The position numbers and the translations under genes are program-made. From Natronomonas salina (GTDB taxonomy: Archaea; Halobacteriota; Halobacteria; Halobacteriales; Haloarculaceae), in contig NZ_CP058335.1 in the NCBI RefSeq assembly GCF_013391105.1, positions 248,001-312,000 of the forward strand: a DNA stretch of 64,000 bases. The letters run 5' to 3'. The stretch's first letter is position 1. Every line of letters starts with the position of its first letter. The notes under the pieces are model-generated. The model saw only the letters and a list, made by a program, of their open reading frames with translations, made no database searches and was not told where the DNA came from. Of this stretch, positions 1,173 through 13,763 are shown piece by piece.

Positions 1173-2831
1173 ATGAGCACCGACGCCGACCCGGCCGAGT
1201 CCGACGCGTTCGAGCGGGTCTGTGAGTCCCTCGTCGAGGACATCCTGGCGGGCGAGATCGACGGTGACGACCTCGAGTCCGCCAAGATGGACGCCTGCCG
1301 GGAGTACTCCTCGCCGAAGGTCCCCAAGAACACGGACCTGCTCGACTACGCCCCCGAGGAGCGCCGCGAGGAGCTGGAGTCGGTCGTCCGCCGGAAGCCG
1401 GTGCGGACCGCCTCGGGCGTTTCGCCCGTCGCCATCATGACGTCGCCGCACATGTGCCCGCACGGGAAGTGCCTCTACTGTCCCGGCGGTCCCGCCTCGG
1501 AGTTCTCCTCCTCGCAGAGCTATACGGGCCACGAGCCGGCGGCGGCCCGCGGCGTCCAGAACGACTACGACCCCTACGGGCAGGTGACGCTGCGGCTCCA
1601 CCAGCTCCGGGAGATCGGCCACCCCGTCGACAAGGTCGAACTCATCCTGATGGGCGGGACGATGACGGCCCGCTCCCACGACTACCAGGAGTGGTTCGTC
1701 AAGCGCGCCCTCGAGGCGATGAACGACTACGACCTCGACAGCGAGCCCCAGCCGAGCGAGGAGGAGTCCTTCAAGCCGGACCCCGGGGAGACCGAGTTCA
1801 CCTACCTCGAGGACGTCATCGCCGAGAACGAGACGAACGACATCCGCAACATCGGGACGACGTTCGAGACGAAGCCCGACTGGTGCGACCCCGAGCAGAT
1901 CGACCGGATGCTCGACCTCGGCGGCACCAAGGTCGAGGTCGGCGTCCAGACCACCTACGAGCGGGTCAACCGCGAGATGCACCGCGGCCACGGCGTGCAG
2001 GCCAGCCTCGACGCCAACCGCCGGCTCCGCGACTCGGCGTTCAAGGTGGGCTTCCACATGATGCCCGGCCAGCCCGGCATGTCGCGGGAGATGTGCCTGC
2101 AGGACTTCCGGGAGATCTTCGAGAACCCCGACTGGCGACCCGACTACCTGAAGATCTACCCGACGCTCGTCGTCCGCGACACCGTCACCTACGACATGTG
2201 GCGCCGCGACGAGTACGAGCCGCTGCAGAACGAGGAGGCCGCTGAACTCGTCGCCGAGATCAAGTCGATGATCCCCCGGTACACGCGCCTCCAGCGCGTC
2301 CAGCGGGACATCCCCGCCGACTTCATCGACGCCGGCGTCTGGAAGTCTAACCTCCGCCAGCTCGCCCGCCAGCGGATGGAGGAACACGGGTGGGAGTGCG
2401 AGTGCATCCGCTGCCGTGAGGTCGGGATGAACGACGAGGAGCCCGAGGACGTCGAACTGGACGTCATGACCTACGAGGCCGCGGGCGGCAGGGAGCACTT
2501 CATCTCCTTCGAGGACTTCGAGAAGGACCTGCTGGTCGGTTTCTGTCGGCTCCGGTTCCCCAATAATCCGGTCCGCCGGGAGCTGGAGAACGCCGCGCTC
2601 GTCCGCGAGCTCCACGTCTACGGCAACGAGGTCGGCGTCGGGCAGGGCGGCGACGACGGCGACCACCAGCACCGCGGCTACGGCCGCCGGCTCCTGGAGA
2701 CGGCCGAGGACCTGGCCGCCGACGCCGGCTTCGAGAAGCTCTCGGTCATCTCGGGCATCGGCGTCCGCGAGTACTACCGGGAGAAGCTCGGTTACTACCA
2801 GGACGGTCCGTACGTCTCGAAGCGGCTGTAG
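1173..2831 (+). CDS. elp3: Elp3-type tRNA uridine-34 modification enzyme (radical SAM + GNAT)
   Basis: This 552-residue protein is the archaeal Elongator catalytic subunit, which modifies the wobble uridine of tRNA (cm5U-type side chains). The radical SAM cluster motif CPHGKCLYC gives cysteines 95, 100 and 103. The central radical SAM barrel includes GGTMTAR, and the C-terminal GNAT acetyltransferase domain has HRGYGRRLLE and a final YYREKLGY. A Cys-rich stretch near 2397-2420 (CECIRC) matches the zinc site of the family. The ATG at 1173 is chosen because the family begins with an acidic N-terminal segment like the one here. Its neighbours are unrelated, so it is probably transcribed alone. 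Confidence 0.95.
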   Translation: MSTDADPAESDAFERVCESLVEDILAGEIDGDDLESAKMDACREYSSPKVPKNTDLLDYAPEERREELESVVRRKPVRTASGVSPVAIMTSPHMCPHGKCLYCPGGPASEFSSSQSYTGHEPAAARGVQNDYDPYGQVTLRLHQLREIGHPVDKVELILMGGTMTARSHDYQEWFVKRALEAMNDYDLDSEPQPSEEESFKPDPGETEFTYLEDVIAENETNDIRNIGTTFETKPDWCDPEQIDRMLDLGGTKVEVGVQTTYERVNREMHRGHGVQASLDANRRLRDSAFKVGFHMMPGQPGMSREMCLQDFREIFENPDWRPDYLKIYPTLVVRDTVTYDMWRRDEYEPLQNEEAAELVAEIKSMIPRYTRLQRVQRDIPADFIDAGVWKSNLRQLARQRMEEHGWECECIRCREVGMNDEEPEDVELDVMTYEAAGGREHFISFEDFEKDLLVGFCRLRFPNNPVRRELENAALVRELHVYGNEVGVGQGGDDGDHQHRGYGRRLLETAEDLAADAGFEKLSVISGIGVREYYREKLGYYQDGPYVSKRL

Positions 2832-8674: not shown

Positions 8675-8770
8675 ACCGTCGCTCCGGGCAGGGCCGCCTA
8701 AGGGGTTGCGAAGCGCGTCGCGGCGGCGCGAACCCGTCAGGCCTTTCTCCGGGCCGCGCCAGGCGACGAC

Positions 8771-10879
8771 ATGGACAGAAAGCGGGCGATGACCAGCGTC
8801 GACCTCGCGGCGCTGGTCGGCGAGTTGCGGGACTACGCCGGGGCGGTCGTCGACAAGGCCTACCTCTACGGCGACGACCTCGTGCGGCTGAAGATGCGGG
8901 ACTACGAACGCGGCCGCATCGAACTCTTCGTCGAGGTGGGCGACCCCAAGCGCGCCCACGTCGCCGCGCCGGAGCACGTCCCCGACGCCCCCGGTCGGCC
9001 GCCGAACTTCGCGATGATGCTGCGGAACCGCATCGCCGGCGCGAACTTCGTCGGCGTCGAGCAGTACGGCTTCGACCGCATCCTCACCTTCCGGTTCGAG
9101 CGCGAGGACCAGACGACGCTCATCGTCGCGGAGCTGTTCGGCGACGGCAACGTCGCGGTCACCAACGAGGACCTGGAGGTCATCGACTCCCTGGAGACCG
9201 TCCGGCTCCGCTCGCGGACCGTCGCCCCCGGCGCCCAGTACGGTTATCCAGACGAGCGGTTCAGCCCCCTGGACTGCGATTACGACGCCTTCGCGGCGAA
9301 GATGGAGGAATCCGACACCGACCTGGTGCGGACGCTGGCGACGCAGTTGAACTTCGGCGGGCTCTACGCCGAGGAGCTCTGCACCCGGGCGGGCGTCGAG
9401 AAGACCGTCGATATCGAGGACGCGACGGAGGAGCAGTACGAGGCGCTGTTCGACGCCCTCGAGCGGCTCCGGGAACCGATCCTCGCCGGGCGGACGGAGC
9501 CGCGGCTCTACGAGAACGAGGACGAACAGGTCGTCGACGCGACGCCGCTGCCGCTGGAGGAACACGAGGCCGAGGGGTACGCGGCGACGGCCTTCGAGAA
9601 CTTCAACGGCGCCATCGACGAGTACTTCCACCGCCTGGAGCGGGAGGCCGAGGACGTCTCCCAGGAGGACGGGACCGACCGGCCGGACTTCGAGGCCGAG
9701 ATCGAGAAGCACGAGCGCATCATCGAGCAGCAGCAGGGCGCCATCGACGACTTCGAGGAGCAGGCCGAGGCCGAACAGGAGAAGGCCGACATGCTCTACG
9801 GCAACTACGACCTCGTCGACGACATCTGCTCGACGGTCCGCGAGGCCCGCGAGGAGGGCGTCCCCTGGGAGGACATCGAGGCGAAGTTCGAGCAGGGGGC
9901 CGAACAGGGCATCCCCGAGGCCGAAGCGGTCGCGGACGTCGACGCGGCCGAGGGGACGGTCACCGTCGAGATCGACGGCACGCGGATCGAGGTCGACCCC
10001 TCGATGGGCGTCGAGAAGAACGCCGACCGCCTCTACACCGAAGCCAAGCGCATCCGGGAGAAGAAGGAGGGGGCGCTGGCGGCCATCGAGGACACCCGCG
10101 AGGACCTCGAGGCGGTCAAGGAGCGCCGCGACCGCTGGGAGCAGGCCGACCAGGAGGACGACGATGACGACGGCGAGCCCGTCGAGCGCGACTACCTCTC
10201 GATGGGGTCGATCCCCATCCGGTACGACGAGAAGTGGTACGAGCAGTTCCGCTGGTTCCGCACCTCCGACGACTTCCTCGTCATCGGCGGCCGGAACGCC
10301 GACCAGAACGAGGCGCTCGTCAAGAAGTACATGGAGCCCTCCGACCGGTTCTTCCACGCACAGGCCCACGGCGCCCCGGTGACGATCCTGAAGGCGACGG
10401 ACCCCGACGAGGCCGCCCGCGACGTCGACATCCCCGACTCCAGCAGGGAGGAGGCCGCGCAGTTCGCCGTCTCGTACTCGTCGGTCTGGAAGGACGGCAA
10501 GTTCGAGGGCGACGCCTACGAGGTCGACCCCGACCAGGTCTCGAAGACGCCGGAGAGCGGCGAGTACATCGAGAAGGGGAGCTTCGTCATCCGCGGCGAC
10601 CGGGAGTACTACCGCGACGTCCCGGTCGGGGTCGCCGTCGGCGTCAAGTGCGAGCCGGACACCCGGGTGATCGGCGGGCCGCCGTCGGCCATCGAGCCGC
10701 GGGTCGAGACCTCGGTCCGGCTCGAACCCGGCCAGTACGCCCAGAACGACATCGCCAAGCGCATCTACCGGACGCTCCGCGAGCGGTTCGAGGACACCAG
10801 CTTCGTCCGGAAGGTCGCCAGCGCCGACCGGATCCAGGAGTTCTGTCCGAACGGCGGCAGCCGGATGAAAGACCAGTAG
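8771..10879 (+). CDS. rqcH: RqcH/NEMF-family ribosome quality-control protein
   Basis: This 702-residue protein is of the NFACT (Rqc2/NEMF/RqcH) family. Relatives bind split 60S/50S subunits with obstructed peptidyl-tRNA and, in bacteria, extend the nascent chain with alanine tails. The NFACT-N domain begins at the N-terminus and contains the conserved FDR triplet (Asp102-Arg103) required for tRNA-dependent tailing. Helical coiled-coil segments occupy about residues 290-345 and 415-460. The NFACT-R domain follows and includes YEQFRWFRTSDDFLVIGGR near 490. The C-terminal part of eukaryotic NEMF is absent. It lies upstream of pelota with one gene between, which fits a shared role in rescue of stalled ribosomes. 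Confidence 0.95.
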   Translation: MDRKRAMTSVDLAALVGELRDYAGAVVDKAYLYGDDLVRLKMRDYERGRIELFVEVGDPKRAHVAAPEHVPDAPGRPPNFAMMLRNRIAGANFVGVEQYGFDRILTFRFEREDQTTLIVAELFGDGNVAVTNEDLEVIDSLETVRLRSRTVAPGAQYGYPDERFSPLDCDYDAFAAKMEESDTDLVRTLATQLNFGGLYAEELCTRAGVEKTVDIEDATEEQYEALFDALERLREPILAGRTEPRLYENEDEQVVDATPLPLEEHEAEGYAATAFENFNGAIDEYFHRLEREAEDVSQEDGTDRPDFEAEIEKHERIIEQQQGAIDDFEEQAEAEQEKADMLYGNYDLVDDICSTVREAREEGVPWEDIEAKFEQGAEQGIPEAEAVADVDAAEGTVTVEIDGTRIEVDPSMGVEKNADRLYTEAKRIREKKEGALAAIEDTREDLEAVKERRDRWEQADQEDDDDDGEPVERDYLSMGSIPIRYDEKWYEQFRWFRTSDDFLVIGGRNADQNEALVKKYMEPSDRFFHAQAHGAPVTILKATDPDEAARDVDIPDSSREEAAQFAVSYSSVWKDGKFEGDAYEVDPDQVSKTPESGEYIEKGSFVIRGDREYYRDVPVGVAVGVKCEPDTRVIGGPPSAIEPRVETSVRLEPGQYAQNDIAKRIYRTLRERFEDTSFVRKVASADRIQEFCPNGGSRMKDQ

Positions 10880-10987
10880 GAGCCGATCGGAAGAGAGCGG
10901 GAGCGACTCCCGGTCGGCGCCGGCGGCCAAAGCTCAGTCCCGGAACACTCCGGGAGGTATAAGCGCCGCCCTCGCGTGGTTCTCGCC

Positions 10988-11911
10988 ATGTTTCGCGACG
11001 CCCTGGACTACTCGACGCGGCCGCCCCGCGGCGGTCGGGCGGTCCTGGTCGGGGGGACGCTGCTCCTCGTCACCGAGGTGGTCGCCGCCGTCGCGACCCT
11101 ACATACCCTCCTAGCCCCAGCGGCGCTCGTCGCGCTCGTGCCGTGGCTCCTCGTCCGCGGCTACTACGTCCGGGTGCTCCGGACGACGGCCGGCCACGAG
11201 TACCCGACGCCCCCGGCGTTCGACGACCTCTTCGGCCTCCTTCGCGACGGGATTGCGGCCGCGCTGATCGCCGTCGCCTACCTCCTCCCGGGGGTCGCGG
11301 TGCTGGCCCCCTTCGTCTACGTGCGGGCCCAGGGGAGCGACCTCGTGACGCTGGTGCTCGGCGGCCGCGTTCCCGAGGCGGTCGCCGCGGGGGTCGCCGC
11401 CGGCGCCGGCGTCGTCGCGCTGTTCGCCCTCTTCGCGGTCATCGGGGGCCTGTACGTCCTCCCCGTCGCCGTGACGCGGTTCGCCCACACCGGTCGACTG
11501 CGGGCCGCCCTCGACGTCCGGACCGTCGTCTCCGGCGCGGCCACCGAGGACTACGTGGTCGCCTGGGCCGTCTCGCTGCTCCTGCAGTTGCTCGTGCTGC
11601 CCGTCGCGTACGCCCTGAAGGTCGTCCTCGTGGGCTTCTACCTCCACTTCCTCGTCGCGATGGGCGTCCGGTACTGCTACGGCCAGGGCGTCGGCGCCGC
11701 ACTCGATCTCGACCCCGTCGACTCGTTCCTCGACGAGTCCGCCGGCGAAATAGACGCCGGCGACCTCCGGACGGCGGTCCGCCCCATCGAGGAGTCCGAC
11801 GAACCGGCGCTGCGCGCTTCCGGCGGGACCGAGGCGACCGACCCGACCGAGGCCGAGGACGACCCCTTCGAGTACCCCGCCCGGGAGCGCGGCGAAGGGG
11901 AGCGCACTTAG
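10988..11911 (+). CDS. DUF4013 membrane protein
   Basis: This 307-residue integral membrane protein opens with [23 protein letters not shown], the usual beginning of haloarchaeal DUF4013 proteins. Hydrophobic helices cover most of residues 15-230. The last 70 residues are acidic and soluble. The ATG at 10988 is chosen because it gives the conserved MFRDAL start. It sits between rqcH and pelota with gaps of about 100 and 22 bases, so co-transcription with pelota is likely. The function of DUF4013 is unknown, and a link to ribosome rescue is only positional. Confidence 0.85.
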
Positions 11912-11933
11912 GGGTCCCGCCCGGACTCCCGGT

Positions 11934-13001
11934 ATGCGCATCGCCGACCGCCAGTCCGTCGAGGGCCGGGGCGAACGGATCACCGTCGTCCCCGAGAGCC
12001 TCGACGACCTCTGGCACCTCACCTACGTCCTCGAGCCGGGCGACCTCGTCTCGGGGGACACCACACGGCGCATCCAGCGCGACGACGACAAGATGCGGGA
12101 CACCGGCGGCCAGCGCGAACCGATGTGGCTCCAGATCGAGGTCGAGGACGTCGAGTTCGCGAAGTTCGCCAACCGGCTCCGCGTCGGCGGCGAGATCGTC
12201 GACTGCTCGCGGGAGGACCAGCTCGGCTTCCACCACACCCTCAACGTCGAGGAGCACGACGAGCTGACCGTCGAGAAGGTCTGGCAGGTCGACCAGCTCG
12301 AGCGCCTCCAGGAGGCCGTCGAGGCCGCCGAGAACCCGACCGTCGCCATCGCCACCGTCGAGGAGGGCGAGGCCCACGTCCACACGGTCGCCCAGTACGG
12401 CGTCGACGAGCGCGCCTCCATCACCGGCACGACCGGCAAGGGCGAGTACGCCCGCGGCCGCGACGAGCTGTTCGAGCAGGTGACCGAGGTCCTCGAGCGG
12501 ATGGACGTCGAGGCCATCATCCTCGCCGGCCCGGGGTTCACCAAACAGGACGCCCTGGACTACATCGAGGACGAGGCCCCCCAGGTCGCCGAGAAGATTC
12601 AGACCGTCGACACCTCCGCCGTGGGCGAGCGCGGCGTCCACGAGGTGCTCAAGCGCGGCGCGGTCGACCGCGTCCAGACGGAGACCCGCATCTCGAAGGA
12701 GGCCGAACTAATCGACGACCTGATGGAGCGCATCGGCGAGGGCGCGAAGGCCGCCTACGGCATCGACGAGGTCGAGACCGCCACCGAGTACGGCGCCGTC
12801 GAGACGCTGCTCGTCCTCGACGAGCGGCTCCGCGAGGAGCGCTCCGGCGAGGGCGACTGGGACGTCGACGTCAACGACGTCGTCGAGAGCGTCGAGCGGC
12901 AGGGCGGCGAGGTGACCGTCTTCTCCCACGAGTTCGACCCCGGCCGACAGCTGGCGAACCTCGGTGGCATCGCCGCCCTGCTGCGGTACCGACTGGACTG
13001 A
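11934..13001 (+). CDS. pelA: mRNA surveillance protein Pelota (Dom34)
   Basis: This is a 355-residue archaeal Pelota, the eRF1-like protein that enters the empty A site of stalled ribosomes and, with the ATPase ABCE1, splits the subunits. The Sm-like N-terminal domain (about 1-130) has the expected opening and the segment [14 protein letters not shown]. The central domain (about 135-265) and the C-terminal alpha/beta domain ending [12 protein letters not shown] follow in order. The GGQ motif of release factors is absent, as expected. It follows the DUF4013 gene by 22 bases. Its TGA abuts, at 13001/13002, the stop of a convergent MBL gene. Confidence 0.97.
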
Positions 13002-13763
13002 TCAGCGCCGCCGGAGGTCCACCGTCAGCCCGTCCTCGGCCATCCGGACGTCGCCGTCGAAGCCCGCCTCCTGGACCGACTCGAGCATCTCCTCGTGGCG
13101 CCCGTCGGTGTGCGGGTAGAGGTGCGTCAGGTACACCCGGCCGAGGTCGTGGCCGGCGAGGGTCTCGCCGAGCTGCGACGGGGTCGGGTGGTTGTCGACG
13201 TCGACGTCGTCGGGGAAGGAGCAGTCGTGGGCCAGGATCGCCGACCCGTCCGCGAGGTCGGCTATCTCGTCGATGGCCTCGCTGTCGCCGGAGAACGTGA
13301 AGACCGCGTCGTCGGTCTCGAAGCGGTAGGCCAGACAGTACATCGAGTGGACGGTCTCGACGGCCTCGACGTCGTAGCCGGCCACAGAGAACTCGCCGGG
13401 GGCGACCTCCCGGAAGGTGAACTCGAAGCGGTCCTGCATGTACTCGTGCACCGAGAGGAGGTCGCGGACGAGCTCCTCGGTGCCTTCGGGACCGACGATC
13501 TCCATCTCGGTCTCGCCGGACAGCCAGCGGGCCTTCAGCAGGACCATGAGGTCCGAGACGTGGTCGAGGTGGTGGTGGGTCAACAGCAGTGTATCGACGC
13601 CCTCGTAGCCGACGTCCGTCTCGGCGAGGCCGTGGAGGGCGCCGCTGCCGCAGTCGACCATGAGGGGGTCGGCGTCGCCGTCCGGGTCCTCCAGCAGCAG
13701 GCCGGTCTGGTAGCGCTCGCCGGTCGGCATCGCGGAGCCCGTACCGAGGAATGTCACGCGCAT
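13002..13763 (-). CDS. RNase Z-like MBL-fold hydrolase
   Basis: This is a 253-residue metallo-beta-lactamase-fold protein with the RNase Z/beta-CASP-like beginning FLGTGSAMPTGERYQTG and an intact HHHLDH motif (residues 63-68). Further ligands are visible in FSGDSEAIDEI, ILAHDCSF and YLTHLYPH. The overall pattern is that of ribonuclease Z-related phosphodiesterases, but it lacks the long arm expected of a true tRNase Z, so the substrate is uncertain. The ATG at 13763 gives the conserved MRVTFLGTGS start. It shares a stop-to-stop junction with pelota and is divergent from the helicase gene, 109 bases away. Confidence 0.85.
   Translation of the reverse strand: MRVTFLGTGSAMPTGERYQTGLLLEDPDGDADPLMVDCGSGALHGLAETDVGYEGVDTLLLTHHHLDHVSDLMVLLKARWLSGETEMEIVGPEGTEELVRDLLSVHEYMQDRFEFTFREVAPGEFSVAGYDVEAVETVHSMYCLAYRFETDDAVFTFSGDSEAIDEIADLADGSAILAHDCSFPDDVDVDNHPTPSQLGETLAGHDLGRVYLTHLYPHTDGRHEEMLESVQEAGFDGDVRMAEDGLTVDLRRR

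What the first reader, a model, noticed from the sequence alone, without database searches (positions are those of the whole stretch)
8771..13001. RqcH and Pelota linked by a DUF4013 membrane protein
RqcH/NEMF handles the split large subunit with stalled chain, and Pelota triggers splitting. They stand on one strand with only a DUF4013 gene between. This suggests co-regulation of two steps of the same rescue path, and possibly a membrane link through DUF4013.
Basis: partly seen in the sequence, partly recalled or inferred. Interest (0 to 1): 0.55.

Follow-up and report, generated by a model that had tools for sequence, protein, structure and literature searches.

The report
Ancient archaeal ribosome-rescue gene pair
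Two genes that clear stuck ribosomes, RqcH and Pelota, have stayed next to each other across a large group of archaea, and a membrane-protein gene later slipped between them in salt-loving archaea; related archaea keep a third rescue gene and a membrane-insertion gene at the same spot, hinting that rescue is tied to the membrane.

Summary
In detail: RqcH (8771-10879), a DUF4013 membrane protein (10988-11911) and Pelota (11934-13001) stand on one strand. The order is not private to this genome. In 107 of 144 haloarchaeal genomes (15 of 17 families) RqcH lies upstream of Pelota, same strand, within 10.5 kb. Outside the order, 59 of 120 genomes of the phylum keep it; an ATG overlaps the RqcH stop (ATGA) in 8 of 20 loci read. 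So RqcH-Pelota is an old pair.

DUF4013 is a haloarchaeal addition, present between the genes in 55 of 108 linked loci; the window's copy belongs to a subfamily that held only locus copies in my tree. "One transcript" is doubtful in haloarchaea, because Pelota keeps its own conserved promoter whatever lies upstream.

Unexpectedly, in 38 of 148 genomes (11 families) RqcH is flanked divergently by EMC6_arch (an insertase partner), with ABCE1 (the ribosome splitter) behind it in 37; in a twelfth family all four run on one strand. EMC6_arch-ABCE1 is itself adjacent in 106 of 148 genomes, overlapping by one base in this genome. The stronger membrane link is therefore EMC6-ABCE1, not DUF4013, whose function stays open.

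The parts
8771..10879 (+). RqcH (NEMF/Rqc2 family), 702 aa
   Evidence: NF041120 839.8 bits; NFACT_N and NFACT-R_1
8730..8749 (+). putative core promoter of RqcH (T-rich box CCTTTC around -27 from ATG 8771)
   Evidence: read; T at -27 and -26 in 80% and 83% of 109 haloarchaeal RqcH upstream regions
10958..10962 (+). TATAA box, -30 to -26 from DUF4013 ATG 10988: putative leaderless promoter of the middle gene
   Evidence: read; as a set DUF4013 starts show no aligned box, though 25 of 94 have an AT-rich hexamer at -34..-24 against 8 of 94 in a control stretch
10988..11911 (+). DUF4013 six-helix membrane protein, 307 aa, with an acidic tail (last 63 aa: 20 D/E, 6 K/R), low-confidence and without helices in the model; alternative GTG start 10976
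   Evidence: PF13197 89 bits; AlphaFold model mean pLDDT 77.7; tail composition
11894..11910 (+). Pelota core promoter GAAGGGGAGCGCACTTA, running into the stop codon of DUF4013
   Evidence: only match in the window to a pattern that I loosened with this copy in view; 0.02 expected at up to 1 mismatch; consensus from 126 upstream regions; a stricter pattern, which this genome does not match, has 18 of its 20 matches in 146 genomes at Pelota
11934..13001 (+). Pelota (aDom34), 355 aa
   Evidence: TIGR00111 319 bits; eRF1_1, eRF1_2, eRF1_3
13002..13763 (-). RNase Z-like metallo-beta-lactamase, tail to tail with Pelota (neighbour, not part of the pair); start chosen by reading
   Evidence: TIGR02651, 119 bits, below its cut-off of 293; on the opposite strand downstream of Pelota in 61 of 128 called loci, 9 families, immediately next in 30
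1209..2828 (+). Elp3-like tRNA U34 modification enzyme, a frequent upstream neighbour of RqcH in haloarchaea
   Evidence: tblastn 71% identity; query identified as TIGR01211; upstream of RqcH on the same strand in 54 of 113 called loci

Best explanation
RqcH and Pelota form an old two-gene ribosome-rescue unit of this archaeal phylum. Inferred mechanism, from the known biochemistry of these families: Pelota enters the empty A site of a stalled ribosome and, with the ATPase ABCE1, splits it; RqcH then binds the 50S subunit that still holds peptidyl-tRNA and extends or clears the nascent chain. The genes stay together because the second step is needed in proportion to the first. In methanogens and other sister lineages they often look translationally coupled (ATGA overlap), and RqcH often sits back to back with EMC6_arch-ABCE1. 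In haloarchaea the unit was loosened: each gene has its own promoter, and one or more DUF4013 membrane-protein genes entered between them; one DUF4013 subfamily is tied to the locus and may be an accessory, but is dispensable to the pair. Shown here: the pairing, its order and breadth, the promoter conservation, the subfamily. Inferred: the molecular steps and the reason for linkage.
For: Order level: 107 of 144 genomes with both genes placed (sample of 146; G089 and G096 left out) have RqcH upstream of Pelota, same strand, <10.5 kb; 15 of 17 families; 16 of the other 37 have the genes on different contigs. Phylum level outside the order: of 124 genomes, 120 have both genes placed; 54 adjacent (-20 to 300 nt between profile edges), 5 more within 2 kb, 14 of 20 families, none Pelota-first within 15 kb. 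In 8 of 20 fetched loci (families f19, f20, f24, f25, f27, f31) a possible Pelota ATG overlaps the RqcH stop by 4 nt. Named examples: Methanohalophilus, Methanolobus, Methanomethylovorans, Methanocellales. DUF4013 between the pair in 55 of 108 linked loci, 19 genera, 8 families; RqcH and Pelota <320 nt apart in 19, 12 genera. ABCE1 within 4 kb of RqcH in 43 of 148 genomes.
Against: 37 of 144 haloarchaeal genomes (one of them at 10.8 kb) and 61 of 120 others lack close linkage; families f9 and f11 in the order and f18, f21, f22, f30, f33, f37 outside show none, though 16 of the 37 and 53 of the 61 have the genes on different contigs. Of 80 named Pelota loci, 51 show no RqcH in the sequence at hand, many with short flanks; in L227 and L230 (Methanoperedens) and L231 (uncultured archaeon) RqcH begins 2.6-6.1 kb downstream of Pelota, the opposite order. 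39 of 104 linked haloarchaeal loci have an opposite-strand ORF between the genes. Conserved neighbours can reflect shared regulation or slow rearrangement rather than a shared step. Related genomes are not independent counts.
Confidence: 0.78

Rival explanations
1. DUF4013 is a real third member: a membrane anchor or receptor that brings the rescue factors to ribosomes stalled at the membrane, with its long acidic C-terminal tail as the docking arm.
For: In a tree of 55 DUF4013 proteins the window copy lies in a subfamily (22 rows, support 98/95) holding only copies at this locus (or beside Pelota in f4) and none of 12 unlinked ones. With a profile of that subfamily the 49 matches of 200 bits or more in 146 genomes lie between RqcH and Pelota or beside one of them (compared by eye). 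Where RqcH has moved away in family f4, DUF4013 stays directly upstream of Pelota in 9 of 9 Pelota loci. Long-tailed members end in a conserved stretch, WPDW in f14 and FxW in the Pelota-only copies of f4.
Against: Absent in 53 of 108 linked loci and in the 20 non-haloarchaeal loci examined, with a profile built from haloarchaeal copies; 0 of 14 Pelota-only loci outside f4 have it upstream. In G067, of the window's genus, it sits beside RqcH while Pelota is on another contig. The profile was built from locus copies, so high scores there are partly circular, and that search scored at most 15 candidates a genome. The 13 unlinked copies in the first tree were chosen for strong PF13197 scores; off-locus copies in f7 genomes score up to 193 bits and were not placed in a tree. 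The window tail lacks the WPDW/FxW ending. Fold matches point to transporter-like proteins, not ribosome receptors.
Confidence: 0.2
2. DUF4013 is a passenger: a tandem-prone membrane-protein gene family, perhaps a CysZ/CTL-like transporter, that settled in a permissive gap between two separately promoted genes.
For: Copy number at the locus varies from 0 to 4. Structure matches by VIA-align: PNS1 Z 9.3, CysZ Z 9.3, 9.1 and 8.9, CTL1 Z 8.3 and 7.9, over 185-221 residues, next row 4.8. In 34 of 108 linked loci the gap is 320 nt or more without DUF4013, mostly filled by other called ORFs, and in L187 (family f28) an MFS transporter fills it. Pelota keeps its promoter whatever lies upstream.
Against: The locus-tied subfamily and its retention beside Pelota in f4 suggest more than chance. 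Foldseek itself gave no match below E 0.001, and Z below about 13 is common for helical bundles (note).
Confidence: 0.55
3. The linkage is only slow genome rearrangement with no functional content.
For: Neighbouring genes such as Elp3 (54 of 113 loci) and an RNase Z-like hydrolase (61 of 128 loci) are also retained around the pair in haloarchaea. No null for random neighbouring pairs was computed.
Against: The pair spans methanogens to haloarchaea with start-stop overlaps and keeps one orientation in both genome samples, and RqcH is joined to ABCE1, the known partner of Pelota, in 43 of 148 genomes. The other neighbours were not traced outside the haloarchaea.
Confidence: 0.08

Closest known systems
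Eukaryotic RQC: Pelota/Dom34-Hbs1 with ABCE1, then NEMF/Rqc2
   Same: Same protein families and, by inference, the same order of steps: splitting, then capture of the large subunit
   Different: Genes unlinked in eukaryotes (recalled); Listerin was not looked for here; archaeal tailing was not tested
Bacterial RQC: RqcH with MutS2 or SmrB splitting
   Same: RqcH family protein acting after splitting
   Different: Bacteria use other splitting factors; Pelota and ABCE1 are not part of it (starts of the abstracts of PMC8373112 and PMC10897456 in search listings, and recall)
Archaeal EMC6-like protein as partner of archaeal YidC (PMC8675477, passages read)
   Same: The small membrane protein beside ABCE1 and RqcH in relatives is Pfam EMC6_arch, by name the kind of protein that paper describes
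   Different: That paper pairs it with YidC and says its gene is far from the ribosomal/SecY cluster; the words ABCE1, Rli1 and operon were not found in its main text
CysZ sulfate permease and CTL/PNS1 choline-transporter-like fold
   Same: Predicted fold of DUF4013 aligns over most of its membrane part
   Different: No match of 47 DUF4013 proteins to another Pfam family below E 0.001; 9-12% identity; middling Z for a helical bundle

Membership tests
RqcH (NF041120) | score over the curated equivalog cut-off, full length | tested here: met
   839.8 bits against 400, residues 8-700
RqcH (NF041120) | NFACT-N and NFACT-R domains | tested here: met
   PF05833 and PF05670
RqcH (NF041120) | binding to 50S-peptidyl-tRNA and C-terminal tailing | not testable with these tools
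   needs biochemistry; the DR pair of NFACT-N is recalled, and FDRIL begins at residue 101
Pelota (TIGR00111) | score over the curated equivalog cut-off | tested here: met
   319.2 bits against 177.65
Pelota (TIGR00111) | no GGQ in domain 2, unlike aRF1 (recalled criterion) | tested here: met
   a GGQ does occur in the protein, but at residues 58-60 in domain 1, by reading; domain 2 (137-245) shows none by eye; the aRF1 model scores 72 bits against 235
DUF4013 (PF13197) | score over the gathering cut-off | tested here: met
   89 bits against 26.9
CysZ / CTL-like transporters | same fold | tested here: inconclusive
   Z 7.9-9.3 by VIA-align, no Foldseek match below E 0.001; sequence scan shows no such family
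One operon RqcH-DUF4013-Pelota in haloarchaea | no independent promoters inside | tested here: inconclusive
   against: Pelota core promoter conserved in every context and present in the window; but this is sequence conservation only, a plain AT-rich-hexamer test did not detect it, and no RNA ends were available
One operon RqcH-DUF4013-Pelota in haloarchaea | a transcript spanning the genes | not testable with these tools
   needs RNA data
RqcH-Pelota conserved pair | same order and strand in distant relatives | tested here: met
   107 of 144 and 59 of 120

The most novel reading that the evidence does not exclude
Archaeal ribosome rescue is organised at the membrane. EMC6_arch-ABCE1 and RqcH-Pelota are two halves of one module that clears ribosomes stalled on the SecY/YidC-EMC6 insertase: EMC6 (a YidC partner) couples ABCE1 recycling to the insertase, Pelota and ABCE1 split the stalled ribosome, and RqcH clears the half-inserted chain. 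The locus-tied DUF4013 of haloarchaea is a second, later membrane component of the same module.
Probability: 0.2. Interest if true: 0.85.

Novelty: new variant of a known kind. Interest (0 to 1): 0.58.

Why it matters
To my knowledge archaeal quality control after stalling is little studied, although archaea hold relatives of the eukaryotic factors. A conserved cluster that unites Pelota, RqcH and ABCE1 says which factors act together and gives laboratory species in which to test it. The phylum-wide pairing of ABCE1 with an EMC6-like insertase subunit, overlapping by one base in the window's own genome, makes a link between ribosome recycling and membrane-protein insertion directly testable. 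No listed title or abstract start, and no passage shown of the two papers looked into, reported either linkage (searches; passages).

Tried and rejected
Regulon idea: the Pelota promoter might mark a set of co-regulated genes. The pattern GAAYRGCAGNNCACTT had 20 matches in 19 of 146 genomes, 18 at Pelota and 2 elsewhere, with 1 match for the backward control. So no regulon for this exact pattern; looser versions were not searched genome-wide, and most genomes, the window's included, do not match it.

Simple-operon idea for haloarchaea: made unlikely by the conserved promoters and by opposite-strand ORFs in 39 of 104 loci (ORFs called by my codon model, so some may be spurious). Against my promoter reading: a plain count of AT-rich hexamers at -34..-24 was hardly above the control stretch for Pelota (4 of 49 against 0, 1 of 24 against 1, 3 of 34 against 1, 0 of 19 against 0) and RqcH (11 of 109 against 5); the signal is a short conserved motif, not a full TATA box. 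L096 and L098 lack it by eye. Loci under 58% G+C were left out.

DUF4013 as ancestral part: none of 20 non-haloarchaeal loci carries it by a profile built from haloarchaeal copies.

Fold of DUF4013: Foldseek gave nothing below E 0.001; the VIA-align rows are a lead only. Families not listed there are not excluded.

Beyond the phylum: no handle in another phylum was at hand, so linkage there is untested.

Gene calling by my codon model failed or was partial in L045, L046, L049 and L095; these were covered by the six-frame profile search. The tree used 55 of 117 rows: 7 long-branch rows were dropped (one of them unlinked) and rows of 60% identity or more thinned. In the wider tree the same split had support 88, not starred.

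Hand choices in counts: two fragments of Pelota in G111 and of RqcH in G105, G187 and G226 were joined as coordinates; I took the second EMC6 match for G161 and a lower-scoring ABCE1 fragment for G170 because they share a contig with the partner, so 2 of the 106 EMC6-ABCE1 pairs rest on that choice. Left out before counts: G089 and G096; G170, G208, G218 and G238. Pelota surroundings were fetched for 23 of the 36 unlinked genomes of the order.
Full report
OBSERVATION. The three genes are real and correctly placed. RqcH is 8771-10879, Pelota 11934-13001. The middle gene most likely starts at ATG 10988, where a TATAA at 10958-10962 sits 30-26 nt upstream.

THE PAIR IS OLD. I located Pelota (TIGR00111) and RqcH (NF041120) in 146 genomes of the window's order. 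Of 144 with both, 107 have RqcH upstream of Pelota on the same strand within 10.5 kb, in 15 of 17 families; one more lies at 10.8 kb; 16 of the remainder have the genes on different contigs. In a phylum-wide sample 124 genomes lie outside the order; 120 have both genes placed, 54 adjacent and 5 more within 2 kb, all RqcH first, 14 of 20 families; 53 have them on different contigs. In 8 of 20 fetched loci a Pelota ATG overlaps the RqcH stop as ATGA. Of 80 named Pelota loci, 29 show RqcH by tblastn: 21 within 400 nt upstream of Pelota (mostly Methanosarcinaceae and Methanocellales), 5 haloarchaeal loci 1.0-2.5 kb upstream, and 3 with RqcH 2.6-6.1 kb downstream (L227 and L230 Methanoperedens, L231 uncultured archaeon). 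RqcH is not seen in 14 of 15 loci labelled Archaeoglobi or their genera (5 of them with under 4 kb upstream), nor in the Methanothrix and Methanophagales loci, several with short flanks.

WHERE DUF4013 FITS. Among 108 linked haloarchaeal loci, DUF4013 lies between the genes in 55 (19 genera, 8 families), the genes are under 320 nt apart in 19 (12 genera, 7 families), and in 34 the gap is wider without DUF4013. Up to four copies stand there. Of 23 Pelota loci fetched from the 36 unlinked genomes, 9 of 9 in family f4 keep DUF4013 directly upstream, 0 of 14 elsewhere. In a tree of 117 copies (support 88), and more firmly in a careful tree of 55 (98/95), the window copy belongs to a subfamily that holds only copies at this locus or beside Pelota; the other side holds the unlinked copies plus further locus copies, many of them next to RqcH. 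With a profile of the subfamily, the 49 matches of 200 bits or more lie between RqcH and Pelota or beside one of them, though the profile was built from such copies and at most 15 candidates a genome were scored; f7 genomes G145 and G140 have off-locus copies at 193 bits that I did not place. The AlphaFold model (6 sequences, mean pLDDT 77.7) shows six long helices, a short N-terminal helix and a low-confidence tail. VIA-align ranks PNS1, CysZ and CTL1 at Z 7.9-9.3 and nothing else above 4.8, while Foldseek has no match below E 0.001. This is a lead to a transporter-like fold, not a membership.

PROMOTERS. Upstream regions of 126 haloarchaeal Pelota genes (loci of 58% G+C or more) share a motif, about GAA(T)GGCAGGNCACTTA, ending near -24, with A/T at -26 in 92% after DUF4013 (n=49), 92% after RqcH (n=24), 97% after an antisense gene (n=34) and 100% after other genes (n=19). 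A plain AT-rich-hexamer test did not rise clearly above its control for Pelota, so the evidence is the aligned motif. The window's copy, 11894-11910, is the only match in 64 kb to a pattern that I loosened with that copy in view (0.02 expected), and runs into the DUF4013 stop codon. A stricter pattern hits 20 places in 146 genomes, 18 at Pelota. RqcH has its own box. So in haloarchaea the genes are probably neighbours with separate core promoters; read-through is not excluded.

THE WIDER MODULE. Upstream of RqcH, on the opposite strand, several non-haloarchaeal loci carry a ~100 aa membrane protein and a ~590 aa ATPase. One of each was scanned: EMC6_arch (PF19094, E 7e-27) and ABCE1/RLI (NF009945, 906 bits). 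Across 148 genomes of the phylum, EMC6_arch lies upstream of ABCE1 on the same strand within 600 nt (median 31 between profile edges) in 106, 21 of 25 families, never in reverse; in 36 the two are on different contigs. EMC6_arch is divergent from RqcH in 38 genomes of 11 families, with ABCE1 within 4 kb of RqcH in 37 of these; they include f18 (7 of 7), where Pelota lies elsewhere. In f20 (6 of 6) the coordinates give RqcH, Pelota, EMC6_arch, ABCE1 on one strand. The window's genome has EMC6_arch-ABCE1 at C1:2486905-2489009 with a TGATG overlap, 2.2 Mb from this locus. The two are not found together in f22 (0 of 19), f30 and f37, and in 8 of 23 of f21; many of those are on different contigs.

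INTERPRETATION. From established knowledge (recalled; partly in abstract starts of listed papers), Pelota and ABCE1 split stalled ribosomes and NEMF-family proteins act on the large subunit afterwards. The cluster joins these consecutive steps. PMC8675477 (passages) proposes that archaeal EMC6-like proteins pair with YidC, a ribosome receptor; a tie of ABCE1 to that protein suggests that recycling or rescue is coupled to insertion. That last step is inference from gene order alone.

PRINT. PMC6514570 (passages) discusses Rqc2 in archaea and gene neighbourhoods of release-factor relatives, but the passages shown name no RqcH-Pelota linkage. Searches listed no paper on it by title or abstract start; lists were capped, and subscription papers and supplements were not searched. 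DUF4013 occurs in one paper, on cotton.

Noticed in passing
L313 (window genome C1:2486905-2489009): EMC6_arch and ABCE1 overlap by one base (TGATG) in the window's own genome; the two are neighbours in 106 of 148 genomes of the phylum.
   Followed up: yes
window 1209-2828: Elp3 lies upstream of RqcH; on the same strand near RqcH in 54 of 113 called haloarchaeal loci, 10 families.
   Followed up: partly
window 13002-13763 (-): An RNase Z-like hydrolase abuts Pelota tail to tail with zero spacing; seen on the opposite strand downstream in 61 of 128 called loci. Its score is below the RNase Z cut-off.
   Followed up: partly
L114-L120, L146-L154: Long-tailed DUF4013 proteins end in a conserved stretch, WPDW in f14 and FxW in Pelota-only copies of f4, and several f4 members share a PAVQxGRxV stretch: possible short binding motifs.
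   Followed up: no
L227, L230, L231: In two Methanoperedens loci and one of an uncultured archaeon RqcH begins 2.6-6.1 kb downstream of Pelota on the same strand, the reverse of the usual order.
   Followed up: no
L226: One locus labelled Archaeoglobaceae has RqcH 8 nt upstream of Pelota, unlike the 14 other Archaeoglobi loci.
   Followed up: no
L173-L177: In family f19 genes that look like PriS primase and GINS (recognised by eye, not scanned) take the place that EMC6-ABCE1 holds beside RqcH in sister families.
   Followed up: no
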